64,000 nt of DNA, from the NCBI RefSeq assembly GCF_903903185.1, contig NZ_CAIUXT010000078.1, forward strand, positions 1-64,000, in the 5' to 3' direction. Position 1 is the stretch's first letter, and each line of letters starts with the position of its first letter. The stretch comes from an uncultured Rhodoblastus sp. Its GTDB lineage: Bacteria; Pseudomonadota; Alphaproteobacteria; Rhizobiales; Beijerinckiaceae. The notes under the pieces were generated by a model. The model was not told where the DNA came from. It saw only the letters and a program-made list of their open reading frames with translations, and ran no database searches. Below, piece by piece: positions 33,687 to 50,419 of the stretch. The translations under genes were made by a program, and so were the position numbers.

Positions 33687-33716
33687 GTTATGGGTCCTTC
33701 CGTGACGTGCTGAAAT

Positions 33717-36449: not shown

Positions 36450-37088
36450 CGCCAGTTTCTCACCTCTTCGATTGTCCCGTTTTTTCGACTGTCCGGTTTT
36501 CGGCCGTCAGGTTCCGCAGACGCTTGCCTTGGCCAATTCCGGACCGGCCGCATGCCCTCCGCGCCCCTGAAAACTAAAGGGGACGGCGGCGCGAGGCGCG
36601 CGAACCGGTGAACGGGAGGGGGCGGGAAATTCCGCTCCTAAAACCTATTCAACTGATAGGAATAAAGGGATTCTTGCGGCTTGACAATAGATTTTCGGCG
36701 CAAGAAGCGCGATTTTTGCATTGCCCCGGGGCGGTCCGGCGCCGCGAGAGACAAACTTTTCGCGGCTTCGGAAAAATTTATTCCGACCCCTCGGCTTTTC
36801 AGGGACGGCGAATTTTTAGATAGGGTTTTTCGGAAAAAATGCGGCTTATTAGGGCCTTTGGCACGAAGGATTTGCCGCGGCTACGGGATGGCCGGATTGT
36901 GTTCTTTTTGCAACGCGGCATTTGTTAATCGAATATTCAGGTTGGTTTTTTGCGACCGTCAGTTGACTCAAAGCCAAGTCCAAAATCATACTAAATTGAT
37001 AGGATAAATATCCAATGGGTAAAGGGGTCGCGCAACACCCTGAAAACGCCGGCGGATCGAACGAAACTTGTCACTCAGAGGTCACATT
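36450..37088. promoter_or_regulatory. Divergent regulatory region between the DUF1549 gene and the TonB receptor
   Basis: A 639-bp AT-rich spacer. It holds CTATT-N5-GATAG at 36645-36659 (flanked by C and G, so CCTAT...ATAGG) and AGTTGACT-N8-AGTC at 36961-36980. The TTGACT of the latter is followed after 18 bp by CATACT, a plausible sigma-70-type promoter for the receptor about 100 bp before its ATG. A GATAG half-site follows at 36998. No cobalamin-riboswitch box was recognised. No gene is evident. Confidence 0.55.
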
Positions 37089-39686
37089 ATGAGTTCATCT
37101 CTCGCCCAGCGTCGGCAGGCGCTGTTGTCCAGCGTCCGGGCCCTGCCCATCGCGTTGATCGGCGGCGCCGTCGCGCTGCCCGCTCTCGGGCTTGTCTCCC
37201 CGGTTTTGGCGCAACAGACCAGGCCGGCGGCGCCCGCCGCAGCCGCCCCGGCGGCGGCCGCCGCGCCCGCCTCGGCCACCTCAGCCGTGATCGAGGAAGT
37301 CACGATCACCGCGCGCGACCGCGCCGAAAAGGACCAGGACGTCCCGCTGCCGATTTCGGCGATCGGCGAAAAGAGGATCGAACAGCAGCATATCGAGAAA
37401 TGGTCGGACGTCGTCCAGCGCGTTCCGAGCTTCACGCCCAGCGTCACCAATCCGCGCACCAGCGCCAACGGACTTCGCGGCATCACCGGCATTTCGGGCG
37501 GCGCCGACGGCTCGGAAGGCGACGTCGGCCTGATTGTCGACAATGTGTTCTATTCCTATATCGGCTTCTCGTGGCTGCGCCTCTACGACATCAATTCGGT
37601 GCAGATCGCGCGCGGTCCGCAAGGCACGCTGTTGGGCAAGAACACGACCACCGGCGCGGTGATCGTCAACACCAACCTGCCGAGCTTCACGCCGCAGACG
37701 ACGACCGAAACGACGTTCGGCACCCGCAGGCTGGTCGAGGAAACCTTCACCAACACTGGCACGCTGATCCCTGACACCATCGCCTATCGCGTTTCGCTGT
37801 TCGGCGCCAAACAGGACGGCTGGCTGCCCAATCTCTACTACCCGTCTGCTCCCAAGGGGCAGGACACCGATCGCTGGGGCTTCCGCGGGCAATTGCTCGG
37901 CACTTTCGGCGACATCACCGATCGCTTCAAATACGAACATGACGCCACCAACGAAACCAACAACAGCAATGGCACCTGGCAAGACCAATATGCCTATTAT
38001 TTCAACGGAACGGCGCGCTCCATCTCCGTGACCAATCCGCAAGGGCTCAAAGCGACATTCAACAATCCGAATCAGGCGCTCGGCTTTCTCTACCCGCAAT
38101 ATGCGAACCGCATCGTCGCGCAGCCCGAGGCCATCGTCTCCACCAATATCGGCAGCCTCATTACCCACACGAACTCCGTGTCGAACGAGCTGAACTGGAA
38201 TATCGGCAATCTCTTGCTGACCTCGGTCTCGGCTTTCGCGCATTTCGATTTCCATCCCAACAACAGCAACGGCAATTACGGCATTCAGACGATCCAGAAC
38301 AACATCAGCGGCTACGACGTCGGCGTAAACCAATATTCGCAGGAGACGCGCCTGTCCTCGGCGACCGGCGAGAAATTCGAATGGACGGCCGGAACCTACT
38401 TCCTGCGCAACCTGATCACGACGAACAACCGGTCTCAGTATGGTGTGGACGCCGTCGGCTCGCAGCAGAGGAACACCACCGGAACAGGCGTCAACGCCTC
38501 GAATATTCTCAACGGCGTCGAATCCGATCTCTATGGCCAGGCAGGAATCACGACGCTCGCGGCCTTCGGCCAGGGCACCTATCACTACGACGAACACGCC
38601 GCGCTTACCCTGGGTCTGCGCGACTCGTTCGAAGACCGCACGGCTTCCGACCATGGCTATTATTTCGGCGGCGCGCCTCTCTCTCCGAGCCTGAGCATTT
38701 TGCGCACCAATTACGTGATCTCGGCGGCCGGCGGCACGAATTTCTTCCAAGCCGGTGAGCAGAAGACCAATTCCATTTCCTTCCTGATCAACCCGTCCTA
38801 CAGGTTCAACGACAATATCACCGCCTATGTGAACGTGGCGCGCGGCGTCAAATCCGGCGCCGCCAATACGACAGCGGTGCCGGTTTATTACACGGGTTCG
38901 GCCATCAACAACCAAAAAGAGGTCTATCCCGTCGTCGGCTCCCTGCCGATCATCACCGAGCCCGAAATCTCGATCGATTATGAAACCGGCTTCAAGTCGA
39001 ACTGGCTCGACAACCACCTTATCCTCAACGCCAACGCCTATCTGAACACCATTACCAACTTCCAGGCGACGCTGGCGCGCTACTACACCTATACCGATAC
39101 TTCCGGCAACCTGAACGTCATCAACAAGAGCTTCCTCGGCAATATCCCGTCGGTGCGGCTGGCGGGCTTCGAACTCGAAGGACGCTATTCGCCGATCGAC
39201 AACCTCTGGATCAATGTCGCCGCCGCCTATAATGGCGCCTGGTACTGGAGTTTCCCGAATGCCGCCCCGGCGGCGGACTTCGCCCAAGTCTATCCGAGCG
39301 CGCAGGTCAACCTATCCCACCAGAAAATTTCCAACGTCACGCCTTACACGTTCATCATCGGCGCCAATTACGAGCATCACCTCGGCGAATATTTCGGCAC
39401 GAACCTGAAAGGCTATGTTTACGTCAACGAAGCCTTCAAGAGCGCGACGCTGTTCTCGCCGCCCAGCTATACGCTTTACACCCTCCGGCAGGGCGCCTAC
39501 TCGCTCCTCAGCGCCGGCTTCGGCGTGAAGACGCCGGACGACCGCTATGACGTAGCGATCTGGGCAAAGAACCTGGGCAATGTGCGCGCGATGACGACGC
39601 AGTCGCTCTCCAGCAACATCGCTCTCGGCGGCATCAGCTACGTCGATCCGCTGACGATCGGCGCCACCTTGCGCACCAAGTTCTGA
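37089..39686 (+). CDS. TonB-dependent outer-membrane receptor
   Basis: 865 residues: a signal region ending near PVLAQ, an Ala-rich linker, a TonB-box-like VIEEVTITA, the plug (PLPISAIGEKRIEQQHIEKWSDVVQRVPSFTPSVTNPRT and LYDINSVQIARGPQGTLLGKNTTTGAVIVNT), then a 22-stranded-type barrel ending in Phe (LTIGATLRTKF). It takes up a scarce ligand using TonB-ExbB-ExbD energy, encoded 3.5 kb downstream. The barrel is of the long FecA/FyuA-like class, but the ligand cannot be read from sequence; a siderophore or a sulfur compound are both possible. AGAGGT precedes the ATG. An upstream in-frame start is less well placed. Confidence 0.93.
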   Translation: MSSSLAQRRQALLSSVRALPIALIGGAVALPALGLVSPVLAQQTRPAAPAAAAPAAAAAPASATSAVIEEVTITARDRAEKDQDVPLPISAIGEKRIEQQHIEKWSDVVQRVPSFTPSVTNPRTSANGLRGITGISGGADGSEGDVGLIVDNVFYSYIGFSWLRLYDINSVQIARGPQGTLLGKNTTTGAVIVNTNLPSFTPQTTTETTFGTRRLVEETFTNTGTLIPDTIAYRVSLFGAKQDGWLPNLYYPSAPKGQDTDRWGFRGQLLGTFGDITDRFKYEHDATNETNNSNGTWQDQYAYYFNGTARSISVTNPQGLKATFNNPNQALGFLYPQYANRIVAQPEAIVSTNIGSLITHTNSVSNELNWNIGNLLLTSVSAFAHFDFHPNNSNGNYGIQTIQNNISGYDVGVNQYSQETRLSSATGEKFEWTAGTYFLRNLITTNNRSQYGVDAVGSQQRNTTGTGVNASNILNGVESDLYGQAGITTLAAFGQGTYHYDEHAALTLGLRDSFEDRTASDHGYYFGGAPLSPSLSILRTNYVISAAGGTNFFQAGEQKTNSISFLINPSYRFNDNITAYVNVARGVKSGAANTTAVPVYYTGSAINNQKEVYPVVGSLPIITEPEISIDYETGFKSNWLDNHLILNANAYLNTITNFQATLARYYTYTDTSGNLNVINKSFLGNIPSVRLAGFELEGRYSPIDNLWINVAAAYNGAWYWSFPNAAPAADFAQVYPSAQVNLSHQKISNVTPYTFIIGANYEHHLGEYFGTNLKGYVYVNEAFKSATLFSPPSYTLYTLRQGAYSLLSAGFGVKTPDDRYDVAIWAKNLGNVRAMTTQSLSSNIALGGISYVDPLTIGATLRTKF

Positions 39687-39727
39687 CGTCTTCGCTCGAA
39701 AACGCTTCATACGCGCAAGTGCCATTT

Positions 39728-39760
39728 CCGGCGCCGGGTTTCCCGGCGCCGGTTTCTTTT
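39728..39760 (+). terminator. Rho-independent terminator after the TonB receptor
   Basis: An 11-bp perfect GC stem, CCGGCGCCGGG-TTT-CCCGGCGCCGG, followed by TTTCTTTT. It lies 41 bp after the receptor stop and separates it from the cytochrome gene. Confidence 0.85.
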
Positions 39761-39780
39761 CCTCGCTGGAAGGCCTCGCC

Positions 39781-40440
39781 TTGCAAAGCAAACGATTTCG
39801 CACCGGTCGTGTTTATGCGGCGCTCGGTCTGTTGTTCGCGGCCTTGTCGTTGGCGCCTTCGCTTCATGCGGCGTCAGGCATGGGCGATGCGGCAAATGGC
39901 AAGATCCGCTCCCAAGCGGAGCAATGCCAGGAATGTCACGGCGAGGCGGGGCTTGGAACCGCTGAACATTACCCCAAGCTCGCCGGCCAATGGGCCGGCT
40001 ATATCCGCAAGCAGCTCGGCGATTTCCAGTCGGGCGCGCGGAAAAGCGAGATCATGAACGCGATGGCGTCCGACTTGTCGCCGCGCGACATTGCCGACAT
40101 CGCCGCCTATTTTTCATCCGCGCCGCGCTGGAGCGGCGAAGAAGACAATTTCAGCGCCGCCGGAAGGGCGCTTTATCTCAATGGCGATCCGTCGCGCGCC
40201 TTGCCCGCCTGCGCTTCCTGTCATGGCGAGAAGGGCGCGGGCGCGGATACGGGAGCCGGGCCGATCCCGGCGCTCGCCGGTCAGCGCGAATCCTATCTGA
40301 TCAACCAGCTCAACGCTTTCAAGGCGGACGACCGGGCGAACAGCCCCGGCGCCGTGATGAACGAGATCGCCCATCGCCTCTCGATAAGCGAAATCGCCGC
40401 CCTCGCCCACTATGTATCGGGGCCGCGGGCGATGGAATAG
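39781..40440 (+). CDS. Diheme cytochrome c4-like protein
   Basis: 219 residues with a signal peptide (ending near SLHAASG) and two c-type heme domains: CQECHGEAGLG (first) and CASCHGEKGAG (second). Each domain has a conserved methionine ligand region (IMNAMASDLSPRDIADIAAYFS and VMNEIAHRLSISEIAALAHYVS). Cytochromes c4 carry electrons from quinol oxidation to oxidases. The only suitable start is TTG at 39781, with GGAAGG 11 nt upstream; the next in-frame ATG lies past the signal peptide. It follows the receptor terminator, so it needs its own promoter or read-through. Confidence 0.88.
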   Translation: MQSKRFRTGRVYAALGLLFAALSLAPSLHAASGMGDAANGKIRSQAEQCQECHGEAGLGTAEHYPKLAGQWAGYIRKQLGDFQSGARKSEIMNAMASDLSPRDIADIAAYFSSAPRWSGEEDNFSAAGRALYLNGDPSRALPACASCHGEKGAGADTGAGPIPALAGQRESYLINQLNAFKADDRANSPGAVMNEIAHRLSISEIAALAHYVSGPRAME

Positions 40441-40463
40441 CAGGCGGCGGCGCTTGACGAATT

Positions 40464-40497
40464 TAGAATATTAATTCTATATATTTTATAATATATA
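40464..40497. promoter_or_regulatory. Two overlapping dyads at the XRE-cupin promoter
   Basis: TAGAAT-ATTA-ATTCTA (40464-40479) and TATATATT-TTAT-AATATATA (40478-40497) are perfect dyads that share two bases and end 14 bp before the ATG. A TTGACG lies just upstream at 40454. They probably cover the promoter and suggest autoregulation by the encoded regulator. Confidence 0.6.
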
Positions 40498-40511
40498 CGG
40501 AGTTTTTGGCG

Positions 40512-41120
40512 ATGAATGCGAAACATGTCGTGGGTCCGCCGGTGACGGAGCAGGATCTGACCCTGGTGATATCCGCCCGGCTGCGCGCGCAAATCCGGCA
40601 GGACGGCGTCACGCTCGAAAAGCTCGCCGATTTCACCGGCGCCGAACCCGAGCTGCTCACCGCCGTGGCCAACGGCGAGCGCGCGCCGAGCATTGACGTG
40701 CTGTGGAAAATCGCCAATGCGCTCGGCGTATCCTTCGGCAGCCTGATCGCCACGCCGCGGCGCGGCGGCGCCGCCATCATCCGCAAGAGCGACGCCAATG
40801 TGCTGGCTTCGAGCGAAGGCGCCTTCCGCTCGCGCGCGCTGACGGCCTTCGGTTTCAAACCGAGGGTGGAAATCTACGAACTCACCATCGCGCCGGGCCA
40901 TCTCGAAAATTCCCAGGCCCATGCGCCTGGCACGTCGGAAAATATTCTGGTCGTGAGCGGCGAACTGGAGATCGTCTCCGGCCGCGAGCCCGCCTATCGG
41001 CTCTCGCCCGGCGACGCTATCCACTTCGACGCCGACGTGCCGCACTCCTATCGCAGTCTCGGCGCGCAAGAGGTCGTCGCGCATCTCGTCCTCGCCTATG
41101 AAGACATTCGCGACGCCTGA
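40512..41120 (+). CDS. XRE-family regulator with C-terminal cupin sensor
   Basis: A 202-residue protein. Residues about 15-75 are a Cro/C1 helix-turn-helix (LRAQIRQDGVTLEKLADFTGAEPELLTAVANGERAPSIDVLWKIANALGV in sequence), and about 110-200 a cupin barrel (HAPGTSENILVVSGELEIVSGREPAYRLSPGDAIHFDADVPHSYRS). Such fusions often sense small metabolites or amino-acid derivatives and autoregulate. CGGAG sits 9 nt before the ATG. It is convergent with exbD, sharing a bidirectional hairpin. The targets are unknown. Confidence 0.88.
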   Translation: MNAKHVVGPPVTEQDLTLVISARLRAQIRQDGVTLEKLADFTGAEPELLTAVANGERAPSIDVLWKIANALGVSFGSLIATPRRGGAAIIRKSDANVLASSEGAFRSRALTAFGFKPRVEIYELTIAPGHLENSQAHAPGTSENILVVSGELEIVSGREPAYRLSPGDAIHFDADVPHSYRSLGAQEVVAHLVLAYEDIRDA

Positions 41121-41169
41121 CCGCTTTTTCAAAGTTCGGCTTTTTCAAATTCGGCCGCAAAAACAGGAA

Positions 41170-41197
41170 AAGCCGGAGGACCCCCGACCTCCGGCTT
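41170..41197. terminator. Rho-independent terminator after exbD (possibly bidirectional)
   Basis: AAGCCGGAGG and CCTCCGGCTT form a 10-bp perfect stem with an 8-nt loop. Reading the minus strand, the stem is followed by TTCCTGTTTTTG, suited to ending the tonB-exbB-exbD transcript. On the plus strand only a weak T-run follows, so the effect on the XRE-cupin gene is less clear. Confidence 0.8.
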
Positions 41198-41225
41198 CCC
41201 TGCGCTTTTCGCCCCCCGGAGCAAA

Positions 41226-41643
41226 TCACTTGCTCGCGGATTGCCCCGGGGCTTCCGCGACCAGCGCAACCTTGGTGAATCCGGCGCCGTTGATGAGGCC
41301 CATGACCTCCATCACCCTGCCGTAAGCGATCGTCCGGTCGCCGCGCACATGGATGCGGCGCTCCTTGTCGTTTTCGCTGTTCGACGACAGGGTCGGCAGC
41401 AGTTGATCGCTGTCGATCGCCGTCTGGTCGATGAAATAGGCGCCGGTCGAATCGATGCTGACGACGATCGGCGGCTTCTGATCGTTGAGCTGTTTGGCCT
41501 GAACCTTCGGCAGATCGACCGGAACGCCGACCGCCATCAGCGGCGCTGCGACCATGAAGACGATCAGCAGGACCAGCATCACGTCGACGAGCGGCGTCAC
41601 ATTGATGTCCGCCATCGGCGGAACGTCGGACCCGGAGTCCTGA

Positions 41644-41663
<20 letters not shown>
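41226..41663 (-). CDS. exbD: Biopolymer transport protein ExbD
   Basis: A 145-residue inner-membrane protein: MADINVTPLVDVMLVLLIVFMVAAPLM is the single membrane helix with the essential Asp in PLVDVML. A periplasmic domain follows (RIHVRGDRTIAYGRVMEVMGLINGAGF). With ExbB it uses the proton gradient to energise TonB. Its start overlaps exbB by 20 bp. Confidence 0.93.
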
Positions 41664-42384
<721 letters not shown>

Positions 42385-42400
42385 TTCGCTTCCTTGGTTT

Positions 42401-42460
42401 CAAAGGTTGGATTTGGGTTTCAAAAGTTGGATTTGGGTTTTGGAGGTTGGATTTGAAGTT
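42401..42460. repeat. 20-bp tandem repeat, three copies, between tonB and exbB
   Basis: The unit CAAARGTTGGATTTGGGTTT occurs at 42401-42420 and 42421-42440 (one mismatch), followed by a diverged third copy at 42441-42460 (six mismatches to the first). The period is exactly 20 bp, about two helical turns. It lies in the transcribed spacer of the operon, just upstream of the exbB ribosome-binding site. Confidence 0.8.
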
Positions 42461-42512
42461 TGAAATTGCGCTTCCTACAGGATCTGAAAGCGACCCCGGC
42501 ACGACGATGACG

Positions 42513-43286
42513 TCACCGATAGGCGAAGCTGATCACGCCCGAGAGCGAGGCGGCGCGACCGGGCGCGTCGACCGTGCCGATTCTTCCGCCCAGCCGCGAG
42601 GCGACGGAGTCGAAGGCGGCGTTGCCTGAGGGCGAGATGCTGAACGAAGTGATATGGCCCGAGGCGTCGACCGACACCCGATAGGAAATGCGCGCCGAGC
42701 GCGGCTTCTGCGACTCCGGATAGGCATTGGCCGCCGCGCGCATCAGCCGCGCATGAATCTGGTTGGCGATCGCCGAAGGCGTGGCGCCGGGCGGAGGCGG
42801 CGCGGTGCGGACCGGCGCGGCAATGGTGGGCCGGCGTTCCGGCGCTCTGGAGACCGGCCTCGGCTCAACTTTCTCGACCGGCTTTACATGCTTGACGACC
42901 GGCTTGGGGATCGGCTTGGGTTTCGGCGGCTCGATCGGGGCGACGGCCTTCTCGACCACCGGCGGCGGCGGCGGCTCCTCGACCTGCGGCTCGGGCGGCT
43001 GCACAGCCTGCGGCTCCGGCGGCTTGGGCTCTTCGACCGGCGGCGGCGGGGCCTCCATCACCAGTTCCAGCGGCTCTTCCGGCGGCGCAGCCTGCGGCTG
43101 GACCTGATAATTCAGCGCGGCGGCCAGGATCAGCGCATAGACGCCGATCGCGACGGCTTCCGCGAAATAGTGCTGGCGGGCGCTTTTGAGCGTCAACAGA
43201 TTCTGGGCGCCGGCGAGCGCCGCAAGAACGCCTTGTTCGGATGGAGCGGAATCGACCAGATCTGCTGGCGCGAAAGCTGAAGTCAT
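42513..43286 (-). CDS. tonB: Energy transducer TonB
   Basis: 257 residues: an N-terminal membrane helix (AEAVAIGVYALILAAALNY), a long Pro/Glu/Lys-rich periplasmic spacer (PPPPVEEPKPPEPQAVQPPEP and PKPKPIPKPVVKHVKP) and a C-terminal TonB domain (SARISYRVSVDASGHITSFSISPSGNAAFDSVASRLGG). The first 43 residues are cytoplasmic, longer than usual. It links the proton-driven ExbBD motor to outer-membrane receptors, presumably including the one at 37089. A CTATA-N5-GATAG dyad overlaps its promoter. Confidence 0.92.
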   Translation of the reverse strand: MTSAFAPADLVDSAPSEQGVLAALAGAQNLLTLKSARQHYFAEAVAIGVYALILAAALNYQVQPQAAPPEEPLELVMEAPPPPVEEPKPPEPQAVQPPEPQVEEPPPPPVVEKAVAPIEPPKPKPIPKPVVKHVKPVEKVEPRPVSRAPERRPTIAAPVRTAPPPPGATPSAIANQIHARLMRAAANAYPESQKPRSARISYRVSVDASGHITSFSISPSGNAAFDSVASRLGGRIGTVDAPGRAASLSGVISFAYR

Positions 43287-43596
43287 CGCTGGGCCTATCG
43301 TTAAGACTGACGTGTCAATACTCTATATATTCGATAGGATTTAAAGGCAAGGTTTTTTGCCGGCGGTTTTCCGGCGGCTTGGCTGAATGGGGCAGAATGC
43401 CCGGCATTTGGCGCGCAAAAAGCGCTCCCTTGACAAAAAATCCGCAAAACATGGCAAAATTTTCCAACTTCACAGGAAAATTTGGAAAAACCGGCGGCCC
43501 GCCGCTACACTCCGGCGCGAATGTCCTGTAAACAGGCTCCACACCTTGCGGGCGCGGAGACTCGGCGCAAACCCGCCAACCCCTATCTGGAATCTC
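43287..43596. promoter_or_regulatory. Divergent tonB / Rrf2 regulatory region
   Basis: A 310-bp spacer. CTATA-TATTC-GATAG at 43323-43337 overlaps a minus-strand promoter with TTGCCT, 17 bp and TATAGA, about 40 bp before tonB. A separate perfect dyad, AAATTTTCC-N9-GGAAAATTT, lies at 43457-43483. A CTATC half-site (43583-43587) sits just before the Rrf2 start. Confidence 0.6.
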
Positions 43597-44031
43597 ATGT
43601 TATCGAATAAAGCGAAATATGGGCTGAAGGCGCTGATCCATCTCGCCGGCCATGAGGGCGTCAGCCTCGCAGCGACGATCGCCGAGGACAACACGATTCC
43701 GCGCAAATTTCTCGACGCGATCCTGCTCGAACTGACCAAGGCGGGCATTCTCGCCAGCAAGAAGGGCAAGGGCGGCGGCTACCAGCTGGCGCGTCCGGCC
43801 GACGCCATCACCGCCGGCCAGATCATCCGCATTCTCGACGGACCGCTCGCGCCGATCGCCTGCGCCAGCCGCACGGCCTACCGTCCCTGTGCAGACTGTC
43901 CGGACGAAAACGCCTGCGCGGTGCGCGACATCATGCTCGACGTGCGCGATTCGATCGCGCTGATTCTCGACCGCACCTCCATCGCCGCGATGCGGGCGCG
44001 CACCCAGAGGGGCGACACGCCCCTCCGCTGA
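43597..44031 (+). CDS. Rrf2-family regulator with cysteine cluster
   Basis: A 144-residue winged-helix regulator: MLSNKAKYGLKALIHLAGHE at the start, the recognition-helix region IPRKFLDAILLELTKAGILASKKGKGGGYQLARP, and four cysteines at 89, 98, 101 and 107 (ACASRTAYRPCADCPDENAC). IscR and RirA use three cysteines at about these places to hold a Fe-S cluster, so this protein probably senses Fe-S, iron, redox or sulfur status. It is divergent from tonB and upstream of cysE. It is the best local candidate to bind the repeated operator motifs, but that is inference. Confidence 0.88.
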   Translation: MLSNKAKYGLKALIHLAGHEGVSLAATIAEDNTIPRKFLDAILLELTKAGILASKKGKGGGYQLARPADAITAGQIIRILDGPLAPIACASRTAYRPCADCPDENACAVRDIMLDVRDSIALILDRTSIAAMRARTQRGDTPLR

Positions 44032-44048
44032 GCGCGGCGGTCATTTTT

Positions 44049-44076
44049 CGATAATTCCTATCTTTATTATATTTTT
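44049..44076. promoter_or_regulatory. CTATC-type dyad and promoter block before the heme-binding-type gene
   Basis: CTATC-TTTAT-TATAT at 44058-44072 is two mismatches from CTATC-N5-GATAG. The 28-bp block matches that at 26333-26360 at 24 positions. TATAAT lies at 44085-44090, 45 bp before the ATG, so the block covers the -35 region. Confidence 0.55.
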
Positions 44077-44134
44077 ATCCCTTTTATAATGCGCGCCGGA
44101 GCCCAAAGGCTTTTCCTTGTGAAGGACGGCGCGA

Positions 44135-44626
44135 ATGAAACCCAGCACCCGCTTTTTCGCCCTCGCCGCGCTGGCGACGGCCTATGCCCTGCCCGCCGCG
44201 GCCGAACTTCCCGCCCGGAAATTCCTGCCGGCGTCGCTGGCGGCGACCATCGCCCAGACCGCCTATGAGACCTGTGCGCAGCAGGGCTACCATGTCTCCG
44301 TCCACGTGGTCGGGAGCGAAGGCCAGTCCATCGCCTCCTTGCGCGGCGACGGGACTCCGCCCCACACTTTCGAGAACAGCCTGCGCAAGGCCTATACTTC
44401 GCGCACCTTCAGCGCGCCTTCCGGCGAATTCGCGCAACGGGTGAAAGACAACCCGACCACCGGCGCGGTGCATCTGGCCGGCGTCATCGCGGCGCAGGGC
44501 GCGCTGCCGATCCGAATTGGCGACGAAGTGATCGGCGCGGTCGGCGTTTCCGGCGCGCCGGGCGGCGACAAGGACGAGGCCTGCGCCAGGGCCGGGATCG
44601 ACAAGGTCGCCAACCTGCTCAACTGA
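44135..44626 (+). CDS. Exported GlcG/HbpS-like (heme-binding) protein
   Basis: 163 residues with a signal peptide (MKPSTRFFALAALATAYALPAAA) and the GlcG/HbpS fold: AYETCAQQGYHVSVHVVGSEGQSIASLRGDG, the helix NSLRKAYTSRTF and PIRIGDEVIGAVGVSGAPGGDKDEACARAGID. HbpS of Streptomyces binds heme and iron and protects against oxidative stress. Other members are of unknown role. It is monocistronic, with its own promoter block and a terminator-like hairpin after it. Confidence 0.84.
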   Translation: MKPSTRFFALAALATAYALPAAAELPARKFLPASLAATIAQTAYETCAQQGYHVSVHVVGSEGQSIASLRGDGTPPHTFENSLRKAYTSRTFSAPSGEFAQRVKDNPTTGAVHLAGVIAAQGALPIRIGDEVIGAVGVSGAPGGDKDEACARAGIDKVANLLN

Positions 44627-44680
44627 CCCGTTCAGGGACGGCCGAATTGTCGGGCGTCCCATTTGGGGCGGGTGCTGGGA

Positions 44681-44713
44681 CTGGGCTCCTTCGGTCGGGC
44701 CCAGGCTTTCTTG
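44681..44713 (+). terminator. Terminator-like hairpin after the heme-binding-type gene
   Basis: CTGGGC and GCCCAG enclose a partly paired TCCTTCGGTCGG loop and are followed by GCTTTCTTG. The interrupted stem and short T-run make this a moderate candidate. Confidence 0.45.
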
Positions 44714-44747
44714 TCTTGCGCCGAAAGGCAAATTCGCCGAAGCTTTT

Positions 44748-44767
44748 AGTTGACTATTTCAATAGAC
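44748..44767 (+). promoter_or_regulatory. AGTTGACT-N8-AGAC operator-like site before the cysE operon
   Basis: AGTTGACT-ATTTCAAT-AGAC, about 80 bp before the small gene that precedes cysE. The same pattern with identical 8-bp spacing occurs at 36961, 46684 (reverse) and 48091 (reverse). It is extended by TT before and AA after. The left half resembles the IscR-type half-site. Confidence 0.6.
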
Positions 44768-44847
44768 AATATATTTCTCTCTCCGGCTAAAACATTTGCC
44801 TCCAAAAAAGGGAACGGCCCCGGACAAAGGGCGCCGCGAAGCGGACC

Positions 44848-45111
44848 ATGGCCCACGCCTACATCATTCAGATCGCCGGACGAACCGCCGGCATCGTGGC
44901 CCGCGACCACGCGGGGCAGGCTTTCCATTTCTTCGCCTCGCAACAGCTGTTCCAGCCACTCGAAGGCGTCGCCTTTGCCGGGCCGCATTTTGCCGAACGC
45001 GCGGCGCGTGAAATTCAGAAGCGGGGTTTTTTCAGCCTGACCGGAGAGGCGGACCCGTCCGGCGCCGCCGAACAAACCGACCGCAACCGTTCCGCCGCGC
45101 GCGGCTTTTGA
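44848..45111 (+). CDS. Small conserved protein upstream of cysE
   Basis: An 87-residue protein beginning MAHAYIIQIAGRTAGIVARDHAGQ, followed by FHFFASQQLFQPLEGVAF and AERAAREIQKRG. I recall similar short proteins beside cysE in Rhizobiales, but I know no function. There is no signal peptide or cysteine. It lies 12 bp upstream of cysE and is likely cotranscribed. The C-terminal 25 residues are low-complexity. Confidence 0.65.
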   Translation: MAHAYIIQIAGRTAGIVARDHAGQAFHFFASQQLFQPLEGVAFAGPHFAERAAREIQKRGFFSLTGEADPSGAAEQTDRNRSAARGF

Positions 45112-45123
45112 GGGGCGCCTCGA

Positions 45124-46005
45124 ATGTCGTCGAAACCCCGCCATCTCACCTTGATCGCCGCCACGCGAAAATCGGCGGGCGACCTCCATCCGAATCTTGG
45201 AAAAGATCCGCTCTGGCGAAAATTGCGCGAAGAGGCCGAGGATTCCTTCGCGCGCGAGCCCAATCTCGCCCGGCTTCTGCGCGCGACGATTCTCGAGCGC
45301 GACAGTCTCGAGGACGCCATCGTCCATCGGGTCGCCGGGCGACTGGCCAACGATCACGTCTCAGCCGCACAGATCGTCGCCGTTTTCGAGCGCGCGCTGG
45401 CGAGGGACCCGGAAATCGTGGCGGGATTTCGCGCCGACATCGCCGCCGTCATCGACCGCGACCCGGCCTGCGACCGTTTCATCGAGCCCTTCCTCTATTT
45501 CAAGGGCTATCACGCGATCCAGACCCATAGACTGGCGCATTTTCTATGGCGCGAACAAAGGACCGACTTGGCGCTTTATCTGCAAAGCCGGTCGTCGGAC
45601 CTGTTCCAGACCGACATTCATCCGGCGGCGCGCATCGGCAAGGGCGTGTTTCTCGACCACGCCACCGGCTTTGTCGTCGGCGCCACCGCCACCATCGACG
45701 ACGATGTGTCGATTCTGCAGAATGTCACGCTCGGCGGCACAGGCAAGGAAACCGGCGACCGCCATCCGAAGGTGCGGCGCGGCGTGATGATCGGCGCCGG
45801 CGCCAAAATCCTCGGCAATATCGAGATCGGAGAATTTTCGCGCGTCGCGGCGGGATCGGTGGTGCTGCAACGGGTTCCCGCCCATACCACGGTGGCCGGC
45901 GTCCCGGCGAAAGTCGTCAGCGCCGCGCAAAAGAACGAACCCTATCGCGACATGGACCAGATTCTGGGCCAGCTCGCCTATGATTCATTCACCTATTCGA
46001 TTTAG
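45124..46005 (+). CDS. cysE: Serine O-acetyltransferase
   Basis: 293 residues: the N-terminal helical domain (DPLWRKLREEAEDSFAREPNLARLLRATILERDSLEDAIVHRVAGRL in sequence) and the left-handed beta-helix with catalytic-site features: FYFK-like FLYFKGYHAIQTHRLAHFLW, HPAARIGKGVFLDHATGFVVGATATI, ILQNVTLGGTGKETGDRHPKVRRGVMIGAGAKILGN. It makes O-acetylserine for cysteine synthesis. The C-terminal IDYQI-like tail that binds cysteine synthase is here FTYSI, ending in Ile as required. No cysK is nearby. Confidence 0.93.
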   Translation: MSSKPRHLTLIAATRKSAGDLHPNLGKDPLWRKLREEAEDSFAREPNLARLLRATILERDSLEDAIVHRVAGRLANDHVSAAQIVAVFERALARDPEIVAGFRADIAAVIDRDPACDRFIEPFLYFKGYHAIQTHRLAHFLWREQRTDLALYLQSRSSDLFQTDIHPAARIGKGVFLDHATGFVVGATATIDDDVSILQNVTLGGTGKETGDRHPKVRRGVMIGAGAKILGNIEIGEFSRVAAGSVVLQRVPAHTTVAGVPAKVVSAAQKNEPYRDMDQILGQLAYDSFTYSI

Positions 46006-46007
46006 CG

Positions 46008-46057
46008 GGCGTTTTTTCAAAAAAACCGCCGCGCCGCCGGCGTCGGCGCGCCGCGGG
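46008..46057. terminator. Probable bidirectional terminator between cysE and the Lrp gene
   Basis: A GC-rich inverted repeat (CGCGCC...GGCGCG) is flanked by GTTTTTT and AAAAAAA tracts. On the minus strand it ends in GCGGTTTTTTT, suitable for the Lrp transcript. The plus-strand side is weaker. Confidence 0.5.
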
Positions 46058-46061
46058 CAAA

Positions 46062-46604
46062 TCAGAGCGTACGCAGGGCGACGACCCGCCGAGGCGCCGC
46101 CCCGCGTTCGCCGCTAAAACCTTTGCTGGAATTATCCTCCTCCGCGCGGGAGAGGCCGAGCGGCAACGCCGTGGTCGACTTGATCTTCTGCAACACGAAA
46201 TGCGAGGAGACGCTGCGGAGCGGCACGATGGCGGTCAGCCGCTTGTAGAAGGCGTCATAGGCGGCGATGTCGGGCGCGACCACGCGCAGCACATAGTCGA
46301 TCTCCCCGGCCAGCCGGCTGAACTCCATCACTTCCGGCATGGCGGAGACGGCGCGCACGAAACTTTCGAGCGAATCCGCCGAATGGTCTCCGGCCTGGAT
46401 GGCGATATGCACGCTCAGGCCAATGCCAACCTTTTGCGGCGCGACAATCGCCACGCGCTTCTGCACCACGCCCGTCGCTTCGAGCTTTTGAATCCGCTTC
46501 CAGCACGGGGTCGGCGAGAGCCCGACGCGCCCGGCGATGTCGGCCACAGTCGCGGAAGCATCCTCTTGAAGGATTTGGAGAATATGCAGATCGATCCGGT
46601 CCAT
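46062..46604 (-). CDS. Lrp/AsnC family transcriptional regulator
   Basis: 180 residues: helix-turn-helix (MDRIDLHILQILQEDASATVADIAGRVGLSPTPCWKRIQKLEATGVVQ in sequence) with the family SPTPCWKRI motif, then the RAM ligand domain (VMEFSRLAGEIDYVLRVVAPDIAAYDAFYKRL). The C-terminal 30 residues are an unusual extension. It is convergent with cysE. Lrp-type regulators often control amino-acid transport and metabolism; the aminotransferase upstream is a possible target. The ATG at 46604 gives the conserved start. Confidence 0.9.
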   Translation of the reverse strand: MDRIDLHILQILQEDASATVADIAGRVGLSPTPCWKRIQKLEATGVVQKRVAIVAPQKVGIGLSVHIAIQAGDHSADSLESFVRAVSAMPEVMEFSRLAGEIDYVLRVVAPDIAAYDAFYKRLTAIVPLRSVSSHFVLQKIKSTTALPLGLSRAEEDNSSKGFSGERGAAPRRVVALRTL

Positions 46605-46683
46605 CAATGGCTTCCCTGGGCTTCCCTGTCGGCGCCGCCCCCGGCGGGACGAAATCCCGCTGGAGCGGCGAGCGTCCAATTTA

Positions 46684-46703
46684 GTCTATAAATTAAATCA
46701 ACT
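46684..46703 (-). promoter_or_regulatory. AGTTGATT-N8-AGAC operator-like site before the Lrp gene
   Basis: On the minus strand: AGTTGATT-TAATTTAT-AGAC. A TTGACA, 16 bp and TAGACT promoter covers the site, so a bound repressor would block it. It is about 80 bp upstream of the Lrp start. Confidence 0.6.
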
Positions 46704-46786
46704 ATGTCAAATGACTTTTGCCGTTTTTGCAGAATTTTTTTCTCCCGCTTGTTTTGCAACAGCGCGCGCCGATCTCCTTCAGCCGC

Positions 46787-47950
46787 TCAAAATCCGCCCC
46801 GGTCGCGCCAGGCGGCGAGCCGCGCCGTCGCCTGTTCCAAAGTCGGCCGGGTCTTGGCGAAGCAGAAGCGGATATAGCCTTGCAGATCGCGCCCCGAGAA
46901 AAAGGCCGACAGCGGCACGGCGGCGACGCCGGCTTCGACGGTCATGCGGCGGCAGAAGGCGAGGTCGTCGCCGTCCTTGTCGAGGAGGCCCGTTTTGGCG
47001 ATGGTGAAATAGGCCCCGGACGCCGGCCGCGCCTCGAAGCCAAGGCCGCGCAAGCTGGCGACAAGAAAATCGCGGCGCGCTTCGAGCGTGGTTTTGAGCC
47101 CCGAGAAATAGGCGTCGGGCATCCCGAGCCCGAAGGCGACCGCCGTCTGCAGCGCGGGCGGCGTGGTGAAAGTAATGAATTGATGCGCGCGGGCGATTGG
47201 GGTCAGAAGCTCGGCCTGCGCCATGACATAGCCGATTTTCCACCCCGTCACCGAAAAGGTCTTGCCCGCCGAGCCGATCCGCACGACCCGATCGCGCACG
47301 TCGGCAAAAGCGAACAGGCTGAGATGGCTGACCCCATCGAACACCAGATGTTCATAGACTTCGTCGCAGACCGCGACGAGGTCATGAGCCAGCAGGCAGT
47401 CCGCCAGAAACCGCAATTCGGCGGCGTCGAAAACCTTGCCGATCGGATTCATCGGGGTGTTGACGACGATGGCTTTGGTGCGCGGCGTGATCGCCGCGCG
47501 AATTTGCTCGCGCGGCAATCGCCATTCGGGCGGCTCCAGCCGCACCGCCACCGGAATCGCGCCGGCGCGGCGGATGATTGGCCCATAGCTGTCGTAGACC
47601 GGCTCGAACAGGATTACCTCGTCGCCGGGATCGAGCAGCCCGAGAAACGCGTCGCATAAAGCCTCGGTGGCGCCGGATGTGACCAGAATTTCCCGCTCCC
47701 AGTCGGCCTCGATGGCGAAAAAGCGCTTCGCGTTTTCGGCGATCGCCCGCCGCAGCGCCGGCAGGCCCATCATCGACGGATATTGATGCGGCCCATTTTG
47801 CAAAGCCGCGACGCCCGCTTCGATCAACTCCGCCGGCTCCAGACCCTCGGGAAACCCCTGGCCCAGATTGATCGCGGCATGCGCCTCGGCAAGGCGCGAC
47901 ATGATTTCGAAAATCGTGGTTTCGCAGGCGGCGAAAACTTTGTTGGCCAT
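46787..47950 (-). CDS. PLP-dependent aminotransferase, class I/II (YbdL/kynurenine-type)
   Basis: A 387-residue fold-type I aminotransferase: INLGQGFPEGLEPAELIEAG, the PLP lysine in SAGKTFSVTGWKIGY, and NTPMNPIGKVFDAAEL. The pattern matches the methionine-preferring aminotransferase YbdL and the kynurenine-aminotransferase group, which could serve methionine salvage or 2-oxo acid transamination. The sulfur-amino-acid neighbours favour the first, though it is not proven. It is on the same strand as the Lrp gene, 183 bp upstream of it. Confidence 0.87.
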   Translation of the reverse strand: MANKVFAACETTIFEIMSRLAEAHAAINLGQGFPEGLEPAELIEAGVAALQNGPHQYPSMMGLPALRRAIAENAKRFFAIEADWEREILVTSGATEALCDAFLGLLDPGDEVILFEPVYDSYGPIIRRAGAIPVAVRLEPPEWRLPREQIRAAITPRTKAIVVNTPMNPIGKVFDAAELRFLADCLLAHDLVAVCDEVYEHLVFDGVSHLSLFAFADVRDRVVRIGSAGKTFSVTGWKIGYVMAQAELLTPIARAHQFITFTTPPALQTAVAFGLGMPDAYFSGLKTTLEARRDFLVASLRGLGFEARPASGAYFTIAKTGLLDKDGDDLAFCRRMTVEAGVAAVPLSAFFSGRDLQGYIRFCFAKTRPTLEQATARLAAWRDRGGF

Positions 47951-48262
47951 ATCGGAGACTCATGGTTTCAGGCTGTGAGCGATCCTGAAGCCTTTCATCA
48001 AAGGCTTCAACCGCCGGCAACGAAGGGCCGGCCAAAGAAGCTCGCGGCTCTATCGCATCGATCCAGAGGCTCAGCTAGCAAAATTATCTTGTCTACAGAA
48101 TTAATCAACTATATGATTATTGCATTGCAGCGAAGGTGCGCCGCCCAGGCGGTTCAACGCGGCATCGAATTCGACGGCAAACCGGCAAGCCAGATTCAGC
48201 GGCGCCAAGATCGGCAGCGCAAGGCTGCGCCTGAACGCCTCGACGGCAAAAGGAACAGTACA
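47951..48262. promoter_or_regulatory. Divergent aminotransferase / sulfonate-transporter regulatory region
   Basis: TGAAGCCTTT-CATC-AAAGGCTTCA (47988-48011) is a perfect 10-bp stem with a tetraloop in the aminotransferase leader. At 48089-48117 a plus-strand promoter TTGTCT, 17 bp, TATGAT contains the reverse-strand operator motif AGTTGATT-N8-AGAC (48091-48110). No gene is seen. Confidence 0.6.
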
Positions 48263-49357
48263 ATGACGGACAGGGACCCCTCCCAAAACCCAGGTTCGCG
48301 CCGCGCCTTTCTTGCCGGCGCCGCCGCTCTCGGCGTCGCCGCGCCGATCGGCCTCGCCGCAGGACGCGTTTTCGCCACCCCGCGCATCGCTGCGCCACCC
48401 GCGCCGAACCTGCCGATCTGCCGGGCCGCCGTCACCGACGCGGCCGCCGCCGCCGGCCCGCTGAAAAAAATCACCTTCGCCTGGAACGCCGGCGCTCCCT
48501 GCCTCGTCGGCGTCACCGTCGCCAAGGAAAAGGGCTTTTTCGCCAAGCACGGTCTGGACGTCGATCTGATCAATTATTCCGGATCGACCGACCAATTGCT
48601 GGAAACGCTGGCGACCGGCAAGGCCGACGCCGCCGCCGGCATGGCCTTGCGTTGGCTCAAGCCTTTGGAGCAAGGTTTCGACGTCAAGATCGTCTCCAGC
48701 ACCCATGGCGGCTGCCTGCGCCTGCTGGTTCCCTCCAATGCCAATTTTTCGAGCCTCGCCGATCTCAAGGGCAAGACCATTGCCGTCAGCGACATGAATT
48801 CGCCCGGCAAGAATTTCTTCTCGATCCGGCTCAAAAAGGCCGGACTGGATCCCAACAGCGACGTCGAATTCAAACAGTTTCCTGGTCCGCTGCTGCGCGC
48901 GGCGGTGGAAAAGGGCGAAGCCCAGGCCCTCGCGGACAATGACCCGAACACGTTCACCTGGCAGAAGGACGGGGCCTTCAAGGAACTCTCTTCCAACCTC
49001 TCCGACGAATATGCCCGGCGCGTCTGCTGCATCGTCGGCGTGCGCGGCAGCCTGATCCGGGAAAATCGCCCGGTCGCCGCCAGCATCGCCCTCGCCCTGC
49101 TCGAAGCCTCGGAATTCGCCGCGCTTAATCCGGCCGAGGCGGCGGCGACCTATGTTCCTTACGCGCCCGGCAAGATCGAACTCGCCGATCTGGTCACGCT
49201 GGCGAAATACCATACCCATCATCACCATCCGACCGGCGCCGCCCTCAAGAAGGAGCTGGCGCTCTACGCCGATGAGCTGAAACTCATTTCGATCTTCAAG
49301 CCCACGACCGACGTCGCCAAATACGCCGAGCGCATTTACGCCGATGTATTGAGCTGA
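48263..49357 (+). CDS. ABC transporter substrate-binding protein (SsuA/TauA/NitT type)
   Basis: 364 residues. A twin-arginine-type signal (PGSRRAFLAGAAALG, cleavage near RVFA) precedes an NMT1/SsuA-like binding domain: KKITFAWNAGAPCLVGVTVAKEKGFFAKHGLDVDLINYSGSTDQLLETLATGKADAAAGMALRWL in sequence. It captures an organic anion in the periplasm; family members bind sulfonates, taurine, nitrate or thiamine precursors. A HHHH run lies near residue 316. The sulfur-gene setting supports a sulfonate-type ligand. Confidence 0.86.
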   Translation: MTDRDPSQNPGSRRAFLAGAAALGVAAPIGLAAGRVFATPRIAAPPAPNLPICRAAVTDAAAAAGPLKKITFAWNAGAPCLVGVTVAKEKGFFAKHGLDVDLINYSGSTDQLLETLATGKADAAAGMALRWLKPLEQGFDVKIVSSTHGGCLRLLVPSNANFSSLADLKGKTIAVSDMNSPGKNFFSIRLKKAGLDPNSDVEFKQFPGPLLRAAVEKGEAQALADNDPNTFTWQKDGAFKELSSNLSDEYARRVCCIVGVRGSLIRENRPVAASIALALLEASEFAALNPAEAAATYVPYAPGKIELADLVTLAKYHTHHHHPTGAALKKELALYADELKLISIFKPTTDVAKYAERIYADVLS

Positions 49358-49369
49358 GGACGGCAAGCC

Positions 49370-50419
49370 GTGACCTCGGTTTCTCCCGCGACGGAGCGCC
49401 TGTCGTCGCAAGCGGCGGAGCGACAGCCGGCGCAAGACGACGCAGGGCGCGCGGGCGCCCCGGCGAGGGGTTGGGTCTCGGACTCCGTCTTGTCGGTCCT
49501 GGCGGGGTCGAGCTGGCTGCTGTTCGCCTTCATCACCCTGCATTGGCCCGATCTCAACGATTGGGGACGCGGAAGCGAATTCAGCCATGCCGCGATCCTG
49601 TTCGGCGCCGCCCTGATCCTGGCCGCCGGACTTGGCGCGGTCTCGGAGCGCGGCGCGGCGCGCTTGCGCCGGTCCACGCCCTGGCTCTTGGCGCTCGGCC
49701 TGTTCTTTTCGCTCTGGCAGGCGGCGACGGCCAAATTCGGGTTGCTGCCGCAACCTTTCTTTCCGCCGCCGCACGCCATTCTCGAAGTCTTCCTCGACGA
49801 TTACCCCAAGCTCGTCGAAAGCGTCATCGCCTCGATCAAGCTGGAGCTGTTCGGCTTTTCCCTCGGCGCTTGCGCCGGGTTCGTCGTCGGCGTGCTGCTC
49901 GGATGGTCTCGCGGCTTCGGCTATTGGGCGCATCCGATCATGCGCTTCATCGGCCCGCTGCCCTCGATCGCCTGGCTGCCGATCGCCTTTTTCGCCTTTC
50001 CGTCGAGCTGGAGCGCCTCAATCTTCCTGATCGCCCTGACGACTGGTTTTCCGGTGGCGGTGCTGACCTGGTCCGGCGTGGCGAGCGTCAATTCCGCCTA
50101 TTACGATGTCGCGCGCACGCTCGGAGCCAGCCCGGCCTTTCTGGTGTTCAAGGTCGCCATCCCCGCAGCCCTGCCGCAGGTCTTCGTCGGCCTGTTCATG
50201 GGGCTGGGCGCCTCCTTCGCCGTTCTGGTCACGGCGGAAATGATGGGCGTCAAGGCGGGTCTCGGCTTCTACCTGCAATGGGCGCAGGGCTGGGCCTCCT
50301 ATGCCAACATGTATGCGGCGCTGATCGTCATGTCGGTGATGTGTTCGAGCATGATCACTCTGCTGTTCAAGGCGCGCGACCGCGTGCTCTCGTACAAGAA
50401 GGCCGAAGTGCAATGGTGA
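49370..50419 (+). CDS. ABC transporter permease (SsuC/TauC type)
   Basis: A 349-residue membrane protein starting at GTG. The C-terminal 250 residues are a BPD_transp_1 permease with the ATPase-coupling loop VARTLGASPAFLVFKVAIPAALPQVFVGLFMGLG (EAA-type GASPxxxxxxVxxPAALP). The N-terminal 95 residues add two extra membrane segments (VLAGSSWLLFAFITLHW, AAILFGAALILAAGLGAV), longer than typical SsuC. Its last 7 nt overlap the ATPase gene. Confidence 0.87.
   Translation: MTSVSPATERLSSQAAERQPAQDDAGRAGAPARGWVSDSVLSVLAGSSWLLFAFITLHWPDLNDWGRGSEFSHAAILFGAALILAAGLGAVSERGAARLRRSTPWLLALGLFFSLWQAATAKFGLLPQPFFPPPHAILEVFLDDYPKLVESVIASIKLELFGFSLGACAGFVVGVLLGWSRGFGYWAHPIMRFIGPLPSIAWLPIAFFAFPSSWSASIFLIALTTGFPVAVLTWSGVASVNSAYYDVARTLGASPAFLVFKVAIPAALPQVFVGLFMGLGASFAVLVTAEMMGVKAGLGFYLQWAQGWASYANMYAALIVMSVMCSSMITLLFKARDRVLSYKKAEVQW

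What the first reader, a model, noticed from the sequence alone, without database searches (positions are those of the whole stretch)
36961..48110. Same operator-like motif, AGTTGAYT-N8-AGWC, at four promoters of a sulfur/iron region
Sequence: AGTTGACT-N8-AGTC at 36961-36980 (TonB receptor), AGTTGACT-N8-AGAC at 44748-44767 (cysE operon), and on the minus strand AGTTGATT-N8-AGAC at 46684-46703 (Lrp gene) and 48091-48110 (sulfonate-type ABC operon). Spacing is identical in all four. In three of them, at 36961, 46684 and 48091, the site overlaps a recognisable -35 or lies between -35 and -10. Known: the left half resembles the IscR-type half-site (AGTTGACT). Inference: one Fe-S or sulfur-sensing Rrf2 regulator, perhaps the one at 43597, controls receptor, cysteine synthesis and sulfonate uptake as a regulon.
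Basis: partly seen in the sequence, partly recalled or inferred. Interest (0 to 1): 0.75.

Follow-up and report, generated by a model that had tools for sequence, protein, structure and literature searches.

The report
Sulfur-regulon operator beside Rrf2 gene
A short DNA control site repeated in front of sulfur-uptake and cysteine genes in Rhodoblastus bacteria marks a genome-wide sulfur-supply regulon, most likely switched off by a CymR-like (Rrf2-family) repressor that is probably not only the one encoded beside it.

Summary
All four strings are present as described; the 4.96-Mb genome has only six. Three (44748 cysE operon, 46684 Lrp gene, 48091 ssuABC-like operon) are copies of one operator. 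A 27-site profile built without 36961 finds further own-genome copies before a sulfate-binding-protein gene and metY, and a weak one before a second such gene. In 11 Rhodoblastus genomes, 26 of 40 hits (E<=0.1) lie before sulfur genes (7 of them ssuA-like), 7 before the Lrp gene, 5 before a methyltransferase gene, 2 elsewhere. The fourth site, 36961 (TonB receptor), is not recovered; its right half is not conserved in a relative, so it is probably a -35 box plus chance. This is a sulfur regulon, not sulfur/iron. Motif presence in 149 family genomes tracks an Rrf2 clade (clade present in 35 of 38 genomes with the motif, 26 of 111 without). Three Rhodoblastus genomes with sites hold only a 60% paralog of the 43597 protein; two that lack both have none. 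The paralog (contig C246) is thus the likelier principal regulator; 43597 may overlap. The nearest known protein is Bacillus CymR; this clade adds four conserved cysteines. Binding and signal are untested.

The parts
44748..44767 (+). operator before the cysE operon (AGTTGACTATTTCAATAGAC; inverted repeat TTGACTATT-TC-AATAGACAA)
   Evidence: exact string; R2 26.3 bits; site also before the small ORF + cysE in G152 and G149
46684..46703 (-). operator between -35 TTGACA and -10 TAGACT of the Lrp/AsnC-type gene
   Evidence: (24.4 bits); sites before the Lrp ortholog in six further Rhodoblastus genomes (G100, G152, G149, G143, G153, G071)
48091..48110 (-). operator spanning the -35 to -10 interval of the ssuA-like promoter (TTGTCT-N17-TATGAT, 48089-48117 on +)
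   Evidence: (26.4 bits); site before the ssuA ortholog in six further Rhodoblastus genomes (G071, G143, G153, G100, G152, G149)
36961..36980 (+). fourth string, before the TonB receptor; probably the -35 box of that promoter (TTGACT-N18-CATACT) with a chance AGTC, not a copy of the operator
   Evidence: not recovered by R2; AGTC not conserved in L086
43597..44031 (+). Rrf2-A: CymR/IscR-type regulator, 144 aa, four conserved cysteines (89, 98, 101, 107); paralog of the likely principal regulator
   Evidence: NCBIfam, alignment A1, PDB search, AlphaFold + Foldseek, tree
44848..45111 (+). 87-aa ORF, first gene of the cysE operon; homologs also precede metY in two other genomes
   Evidence: no NCBIfam or Pfam match at the thresholds used
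45124..46005 (+). cysE, serine O-acetyltransferase
   Evidence: TIGR01172 229.4 bits, above its cut-off of 210.65
46062..46607 (-). Lrp/AsnC-family regulator, a regulon member ('Lrp-S')
46787..47950 (-). PLP aminotransferase; divergent from ssuA, could share the 48091 operator
   Evidence: NF006488 above cut-off; a methionine-aminotransferase model below cut-off
48263..49357 (+). ssuA-like ABC substrate-binding protein
   Evidence: only NCBIfam match TIGR01728 (SsuA_fam) 86.3 bits, below its cut-off of 163.5
49370..50419 (+). ABC permease of the nitrate/sulfonate/taurine type
   Evidence: best model nitrate permease NtrB 104.2 bits, SsuC 88 bits, both below cut-off
50413..51207 (+). ABC ATPase, best model aliphatic-sulfonates ATP-binding protein
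   Evidence: 238.9 bits, below the cut-off of 395

Best explanation
The three good sites are operators of a sulfur-assimilation regulon. A dimeric Rrf2-family repressor of the CymR/IscR fold sits on the AT-rich inverted repeat (consensus about TATAGTTGACTATTTTTATAGACAAGATA) where it overlaps the -35/-10 region. It blocks RNA polymerase while cysteine (or another sign of sulfur sufficiency) is plentiful. When sulfur runs short it lets go, and sulfate and sulfonate-type uptake, serine acetylation (cysE), cysteine synthase, O-acetylhomoserine sulfhydrylase, a TauE-type exporter and an accessory Lrp-family regulator are made. Shown here: the sites, their genome-wide targets, their conservation, promoter overlap and co-occurrence with the Rrf2 clade. 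Inferred: the Rrf2 protein is the binder; the principal one is the paralog on contig C246 (Rrf2-B), with Rrf2-A (43597) a paralog that may share sites; it represses; the signal is cysteine status. The signal might be read through CysK as in CymR, or through the four conserved cysteines, possibly an Fe-S cluster.
For: Own-genome R2 hits before ssuA, cysE operon, Lrp, tam-like, a sulfate-binding-protein gene, metY and, weakly (E 0.9), a second sulfate-binding-protein gene. 11-genome scan: of 40 hits with E<=0.1, 26 before sulfur genes, 7 before Lrp, 5 before tam, 2 other; of the 15 hits not in the training set, 11 sulfur, 3 tam, 1 other (assigned and counted by hand; several are orthologs of training sites). 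Outside the genus, of 24 fetched hits that were not training sites, 11 lie at sulfur genes such as SsuA, SfnB, a DmoA-type monooxygenase, sulfate-binding protein and metY. Co-occurrence with the Rrf2 clade: 35 of 38 genomes with a match versus 26 of 111 without, Fisher 3e-14; without the six Rhodoblastus genomes 30 of 33 versus 26 of 110; by genus 14 of 15 versus 7 of 28. G033 and G150 lack both Rrf2-A and -B and have no site; G152, G151 and G123 have only B and have sites. Methylocystis: a variant of the site in the tauE/Rrf2-B gap beside cysK. Nearest PDB relative by sequence and by fold is CymR 2y75.
Against: No binding or expression data. Genomes are related, so the Fisher values overstate independence. 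26 of 61 Rrf2 genomes show no hit (where only 48 candidates per genome were scored). Of 80 named Rrf2 loci, R1 found only 10 hits at E<=10, just two of them strong (R. acidophilus ssuA), so most Rrf2-B loci in other Alphaproteobacteria show no such site. No R2 hit lies at Rrf2-B's own promoter in Rhodoblastus. Ten of the 24 out-of-genus hits lie at unassigned or unrelated genes. The ssuA-like genes, 7 of the 26 sulfur hits, fit SsuA only below the curated cut-off. The inverted repeat has two competing registers, TTGWCTAT-N4-ATAGWCAA, or GTCTAT-N7-ATAGAC in the R. acidophilus ssuA sites, and no axis stands out from column composition. Reversed-profile control: 17 of 149 genomes at E<=0.5, 11 of them with Rrf2 (one match overlaps a true ssuA site), so weak hits are partly noise; at E<=0.05 it is 2 genomes against 22.
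Confidence: 0.72

Rival explanations
1. The Rrf2 protein at 43597 (Rrf2-A) alone is the regulator of these sites.
For: It lies 0.7 kb from the cysE site; in G143 it sits in a stretch with ssuABC, XRE-cupin and a cysteine-synthase/CBS-like gene that has its own site. In the tree it groups with four proteins of Rhodospirillaceae, Novispirillaceae and Terasakiellaceae, all four of whose loci carry sulfate-binding-protein or cysteine-synthase genes.
Against: G152 (99% complete), G151 (93%) and G123 (98%, 5 contigs) have sites but no Rrf2-A. The Methylocystis site lies at Rrf2-B. All 14 genomes with an A ortholog also had a B-like match, so A is never seen alone.
Confidence: 0.15
2. The Lrp/AsnC protein at 46062 is the regulator and the site before it is autoregulatory.
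For: Its promoter is one of the two most often hit (7 of 40 hits, as is ssuA); Lrp autoregulation is common (recalled).
Against: Lrp matches show no association with motif genomes (16 of 33 versus 61 of 110, p 0.55; a loose control, since the threshold also admits a housekeeping Lrp). G017 has a strong site (a training site) and no Lrp match at 1e-45; G123 has a tam site and only a 57% Lrp.
Confidence: 0.08
3. Another unlinked regulator (for example a LysR-type CysB-like protein) that merely co-occurs with the Rrf2 clade binds the sites.
For: No binding data; 26 of 61 Rrf2 genomes lack hits; LysR-type proteins were not examined.
Against: Site in the tauE/Rrf2-B gap of Methylocystis and between an Rrf2 gene and a sulfate-binding-protein gene in G085; two Rhodoblastus genomes lack Rrf2 and sites together.
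Confidence: 0.12
4. The strings are just AT-rich promoter elements (TTGACW plus spacer), not an operator.
For: The sites overlap -35/-10 boxes; 36961 is probably exactly this.
Against: Conserved bases fill the spacer; hits concentrate at sulfur genes in nine genomes and are absent from two sister genomes; few reversed-profile hits at strict E.
Confidence: 0.03

Closest known systems
CymR regulon of Bacillus subtilis / Staphylococcus aureus (Rrf2 family)
   Same: Rrf2 repressor of cysteine/sulfur genes; nearest solved relative by sequence (2y75, E 1.3e-24) and by fold (TM 0.78 by query length); cysK near Rrf2-B in Methylocystis recalls the CymR-CysK complex (PMC2940859, passages seen)
   Different: NCBIfam CymR model 70.7 bits against a cut-off of 195; four conserved cysteines in a segment that is mostly a gap in CymR; operator not compared with a CymR consensus from any source
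IscR type 1 operator and regulon
   Same: left half ATAGTTGACT fits ATASYYGACT (consensus: PMC3899308, passage); same protein family
   Different: half-sites 3 bp further apart (N8 against N5); targets found here are sulfur uptake and cysteine/methionine synthesis, not isc/suf; IscR model 55.5 bits against 207.55
IscR / Iron-Rhodo-box and RirA systems of Alphaproteobacteria
   Same: Rrf2 regulators in Alphaproteobacteria with palindromic sites over promoters; the R. sphaeroides IscR paper has a section headed iron and sulfur metabolism (PMC4618611, passages seen)
   Different: targets mainly iron uptake and Fe-S assembly; Iron-Rhodo-box is 19 bp; RirA model 44.7 bits against 193

Membership tests
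CymR equivalog | score above the curated NCBIfam cut-off (195 bits) | tested here: not met
   Rrf2-A 70.7 bits; Rrf2-B not scanned
CymR equivalog | regulon of cysteine and sulfur-source genes | tested here: met
   for the motif, not shown for the protein:
CymR equivalog | DNA binding through a complex with CysK, OAS as signal | not testable with these tools
   only gene neighbourhood with cysK in Methylocystis
IscR | score above the curated cut-off (TIGR02010, 207.55 bits) | tested here: not met
   55.5 bits
IscR | type 1 operator with GACT-N5-AGTC | tested here: not met
   all four sites have N8; consensus from PMC3899308
RirA | score above the curated cut-off (193 bits) | tested here: not met
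   44.7 bits
Rrf2 superfamily | TIGR00738 above cut-off (73.3 bits) | tested here: met
   100.4 bits
Fe-S sensing Rrf2 regulators | bound Fe-S cluster | not testable with these tools
   four invariant Cys in 18 aligned proteins; model unsure there, mean pLDDT 67 and 63 for residues 81-90 and 91-100

The most novel reading that the evidence does not exclude
This four-cysteine Rrf2 clade is the master repressor of sulfur assimilation in Beijerinckiaceae and relatives, and perhaps, with diverged operators, in much of the Alphaproteobacteria. It would be an independent counterpart of Firmicute CymR with its own operator and probably a cysteine-ligated or Fe-S sensor. In Rhodoblastus two paralogs (C246 and 43597) would divide or share the regulon.
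Probability: 0.5. Interest if true: 0.65.

Novelty: new variant of a known kind. Interest (0 to 1): 0.55.

Why it matters
One search listed only 12 of its 22 papers, and only open-licence papers are held, so it may be in print elsewhere. If right, it gives phototrophic and methanotrophic Alphaproteobacteria a testable sulfur regulator and a genome-wide target list including uncharacterised members (an 87-aa protein, a methyltransferase).

Tried and rejected
Exact-pattern search across 149 family genomes: 30 have a match, 38 matches in all against 24 for the backward pattern (32 against 24 without the own genome; my count), so exact matches alone say little outside the genus and a profile was needed. 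The 1-mismatch search of the shortened pattern gave 298 hits against 183 in the backward control: not usable. The XRE-cupin, ExbBD-TonB and TonB-receptor neighbourhood of Rrf2-A was considered as the regulon of 43597; a separate palindrome CCTAT-N7-ATAGG lies there but I did not test it genome-wide. Inverted-repeat register: 20 axes tested, none stands out from column composition. Structure model: cysteine segment too unsure to read a metal site. Sites left out of R2: 36961 and R1 hits L187, L174, L189, L190 and L208; other weak R1 hits were not considered for it. I chose the 27 training sites partly by gene context, hence the separate count on the 15 hits not used for training. Rrf2 linkage: by hand 29 of 80 loci carry a CysK, TauE, Sbp, CBS or MetY hit within the fetched stretch (four only at 42% identity or less); loci differ in length and no random-locus control was made. 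Of 28 Rrf2 upstream regions printed, eight Methylocystis-type ones match CTCTATAAA-N4-GTC[AG]ACT, a variant of the site; only three of these reached R1's list, at E about 0.2. L122 shows a weaker match at Lrp; in the others I saw none by eye. Profile scans score only part of the first-look candidates (150 per genome per genome).
Full report
What was claimed and what is there. The four strings AGTTGAYT-N8-AGWC are at 36961 (+), 44748 (+), 46684 (-) and 48091 (-); none appears in 100 shuffles. The genome as assembled, 4.96 Mb in 257 contigs, has six, the backward control none; about 0.6 are expected by composition. The host belongs near Rhodoblastus: its Rrf2 gene matches a Rhodoblastus MAG at 93% and R. 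acidophilus at 85-86%.

One operator, three of the four sites. Reading the flanks of the sites and of the ssuA promoters of three same-genus genomes showed a longer conserved block, about TATAGT(TG/CT)AYTATTTTTATAGACAAGATA. A first profile (R1, 11 sites including 36961) over 11 Rhodoblastus genomes hit 9. A second (R2, 27 sites, 36961 left out) again hit 9 of 11. Own-genome hits with R2, nine at E<=5: 48084 ssuA, 44745 cysE operon, 46679 Lrp, C12 tam-like (these four are training sites), C135 sulfate-binding protein (E 0.013), C237 metY (two overlapping hits, best E 0.097), C68 second sulfate-binding protein (E 0.9), C234 an outer-membrane-type ORF (E 2.7; name mine from the sequence) (contexts). 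The 36961 site is not among them. In L086 the TonB-receptor promoter keeps TTGACT and the downstream CATACT...TTGATAGGA but not AGTC.

Regulon. Of the 40 genus hits with E<=0.1, I assigned by context: ssuA-like 7, sulfate-binding protein 6, TauE-type exporter 4, cysE operon 3, metY 3, cysteine synthase/CBS-like 3 (26 sulfur); Lrp 7; tam 5; other 2 (G151:C126, G071:C27). Fifteen of these were not in the training set: 11 sulfur, 3 tam, 1 other; several are orthologs of training sites. Gene identities were checked by family scan for representatives only. O-acetylhomoserine sulfhydrylase, sulfate-binding protein and tam lie above curated cut-offs, TauE above Pfam's, cysE above TIGR01172's. The CBS-like protein and the window's ABC system lie below their cut-offs; for the permease the best model is a nitrate permease. 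So 'sulfonate' rests on family resemblance plus the company of the regulon. The cysK genes of G149 and G152 were named by 55-56% identity to a CysK-like protein of G017 that was itself named from its sequence.

Outside the genus. In the family scan (149 genomes) 33 non-Rhodoblastus genomes have a match; loci of 25 were fetched, one per genome, and one (L233) is a training site. Of the other 24, 11 lie at recognised sulfur genes or in their clusters: L235 and L251 SsuA, L245 SsuA cluster, L247 SfnB, L249 and L257 sulfate-binding protein, L253 and L254 SsuB-like beside a DmoA-type monooxygenase, L238 metY/Lrp, L239 and L241 small ORF and metY. Three are likely kin (L236 small ORF, L250 tam, L252 SfnB-like below cut-off), and ten are unassigned or other (L234 mobA, L237 polyamine-type binding protein, L240 and L255 sigma-54 activators, L242, L243 lipase, L244, L246, L248 amino-acid-type binding protein, L256 DUF1549-like by sequence).

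The regulator. The 43597 protein is an Rrf2 protein. The own genome holds a 59% paralog on C246. Across the 149 genomes, R2 matches (E<=0.5) fall in 38, of which 35 hold a clade member at E<=1e-30, against 26 of the other 111 (Fisher 3e-14); leaving out Rhodoblastus 30 of 33 against 26 of 110; by genus 14 of 15 against 7 of 28. Lrp matches do not associate (p 0.55). The reversed-profile control hit 17 of 149 at E<=0.5 (11 of the 17 hold Rrf2, my count; one match overlaps a true ssuA site) and 2 at E<=0.05, against 22 for R2. Within the genus, six genomes have A and B and sites; G152, G151 and G123 have B only and sites (in G123 one good one, before tam); G033 (at most a 27% match) and G150 have neither and no sites. 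In Methylocystis a variant of the site lies in the gap between Rrf2-B and tauE-cysK. In Methylosinus L122, Rrf2-B is divergent from the Lrp gene. Rrf2-A forms one clade (99/92) that groups (96/98) with four proteins of Rhodospirillaceae, Novispirillaceae and Terasakiellaceae, whose loci carry sulfate-binding-protein or cysteine-synthase genes. So A is also plausibly a sulfur regulator, and sharing of sites by A and B is not excluded. Against a wide reach: R1 found only 10 hits in 80 named Rrf2 loci, two of them strong.

Mechanism. Sites over -35/-10 suggest repression. The fold is closest to CymR (2y75, TM 0.78). CymR works with CysK and O-acetylserine as sensor (PMC2940859, passages). The clade has four invariant cysteines in a segment that CymR mostly lacks (alignment), so direct thiol or Fe-S sensing is an alternative. 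None of this is tested.

Comparison. IscR type 1 is ATASYYGACTRWWWYAGTCRRSTAT (PMC3899308, passage): the same left half, but spacing 5 instead of 8. CymR, IscR and RirA membership of Rrf2-A fails by curated scores. I therefore call it CymR-like in role, a separate Rrf2 branch in membership. The checking round changed counts and wording, not odds.

Noticed in passing
window 36644-36660 and 43322-43338; L086 3118; L066 4995: A different inverted repeat, CCTAT-N7-ATAGG (one arm TCTAT at 43322), in the DUF1549/TonB-receptor gap and upstream of Rrf2-A; the former is conserved in L086. Possible separate Rrf2-A operator.
   Followed up: partly
L191, L215, L221, L262, L268, L249, L250: A trans-aconitate-2-methyltransferase-like gene carries the sulfur operator in five Rhodoblastus genomes and in two genomes of one other genus; in L249 it is divergent from a sulfate-binding protein. 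Why a methyltransferase should be sulfur-controlled is unexplained.
   Followed up: partly
window 44848-45111: 87-aa protein without a family match that precedes cysE here and metY in two other genomes: a candidate new sulfur-metabolism protein.
   Followed up: partly
window 32247-36449: DUF1501 and DUF1549/DUF1553 proteins (types I recall as planctomycete-like) next to a TonB receptor and a c-type cytochrome; in G050 a DUF1549-like gene (by sequence) has a weak operator match upstream (L256).
   Followed up: partly
L240, L255: Sigma-54-dependent activator genes next to operator matches in two genomes of one genus (L255 by sequence likeness to L240); might be SfnR-like sulfur activators (recalled, not tested).
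   Followed up: no
G000 contig C246 4222-4638 (L079): Rrf2-B itself lies between an AmpG-like transporter gene and an acyl-CoA-synthetase-like gene in Rhodoblastus, away from sulfur genes and without an R2 site; the neighbour names are mine from the sequence.
   Followed up: partly
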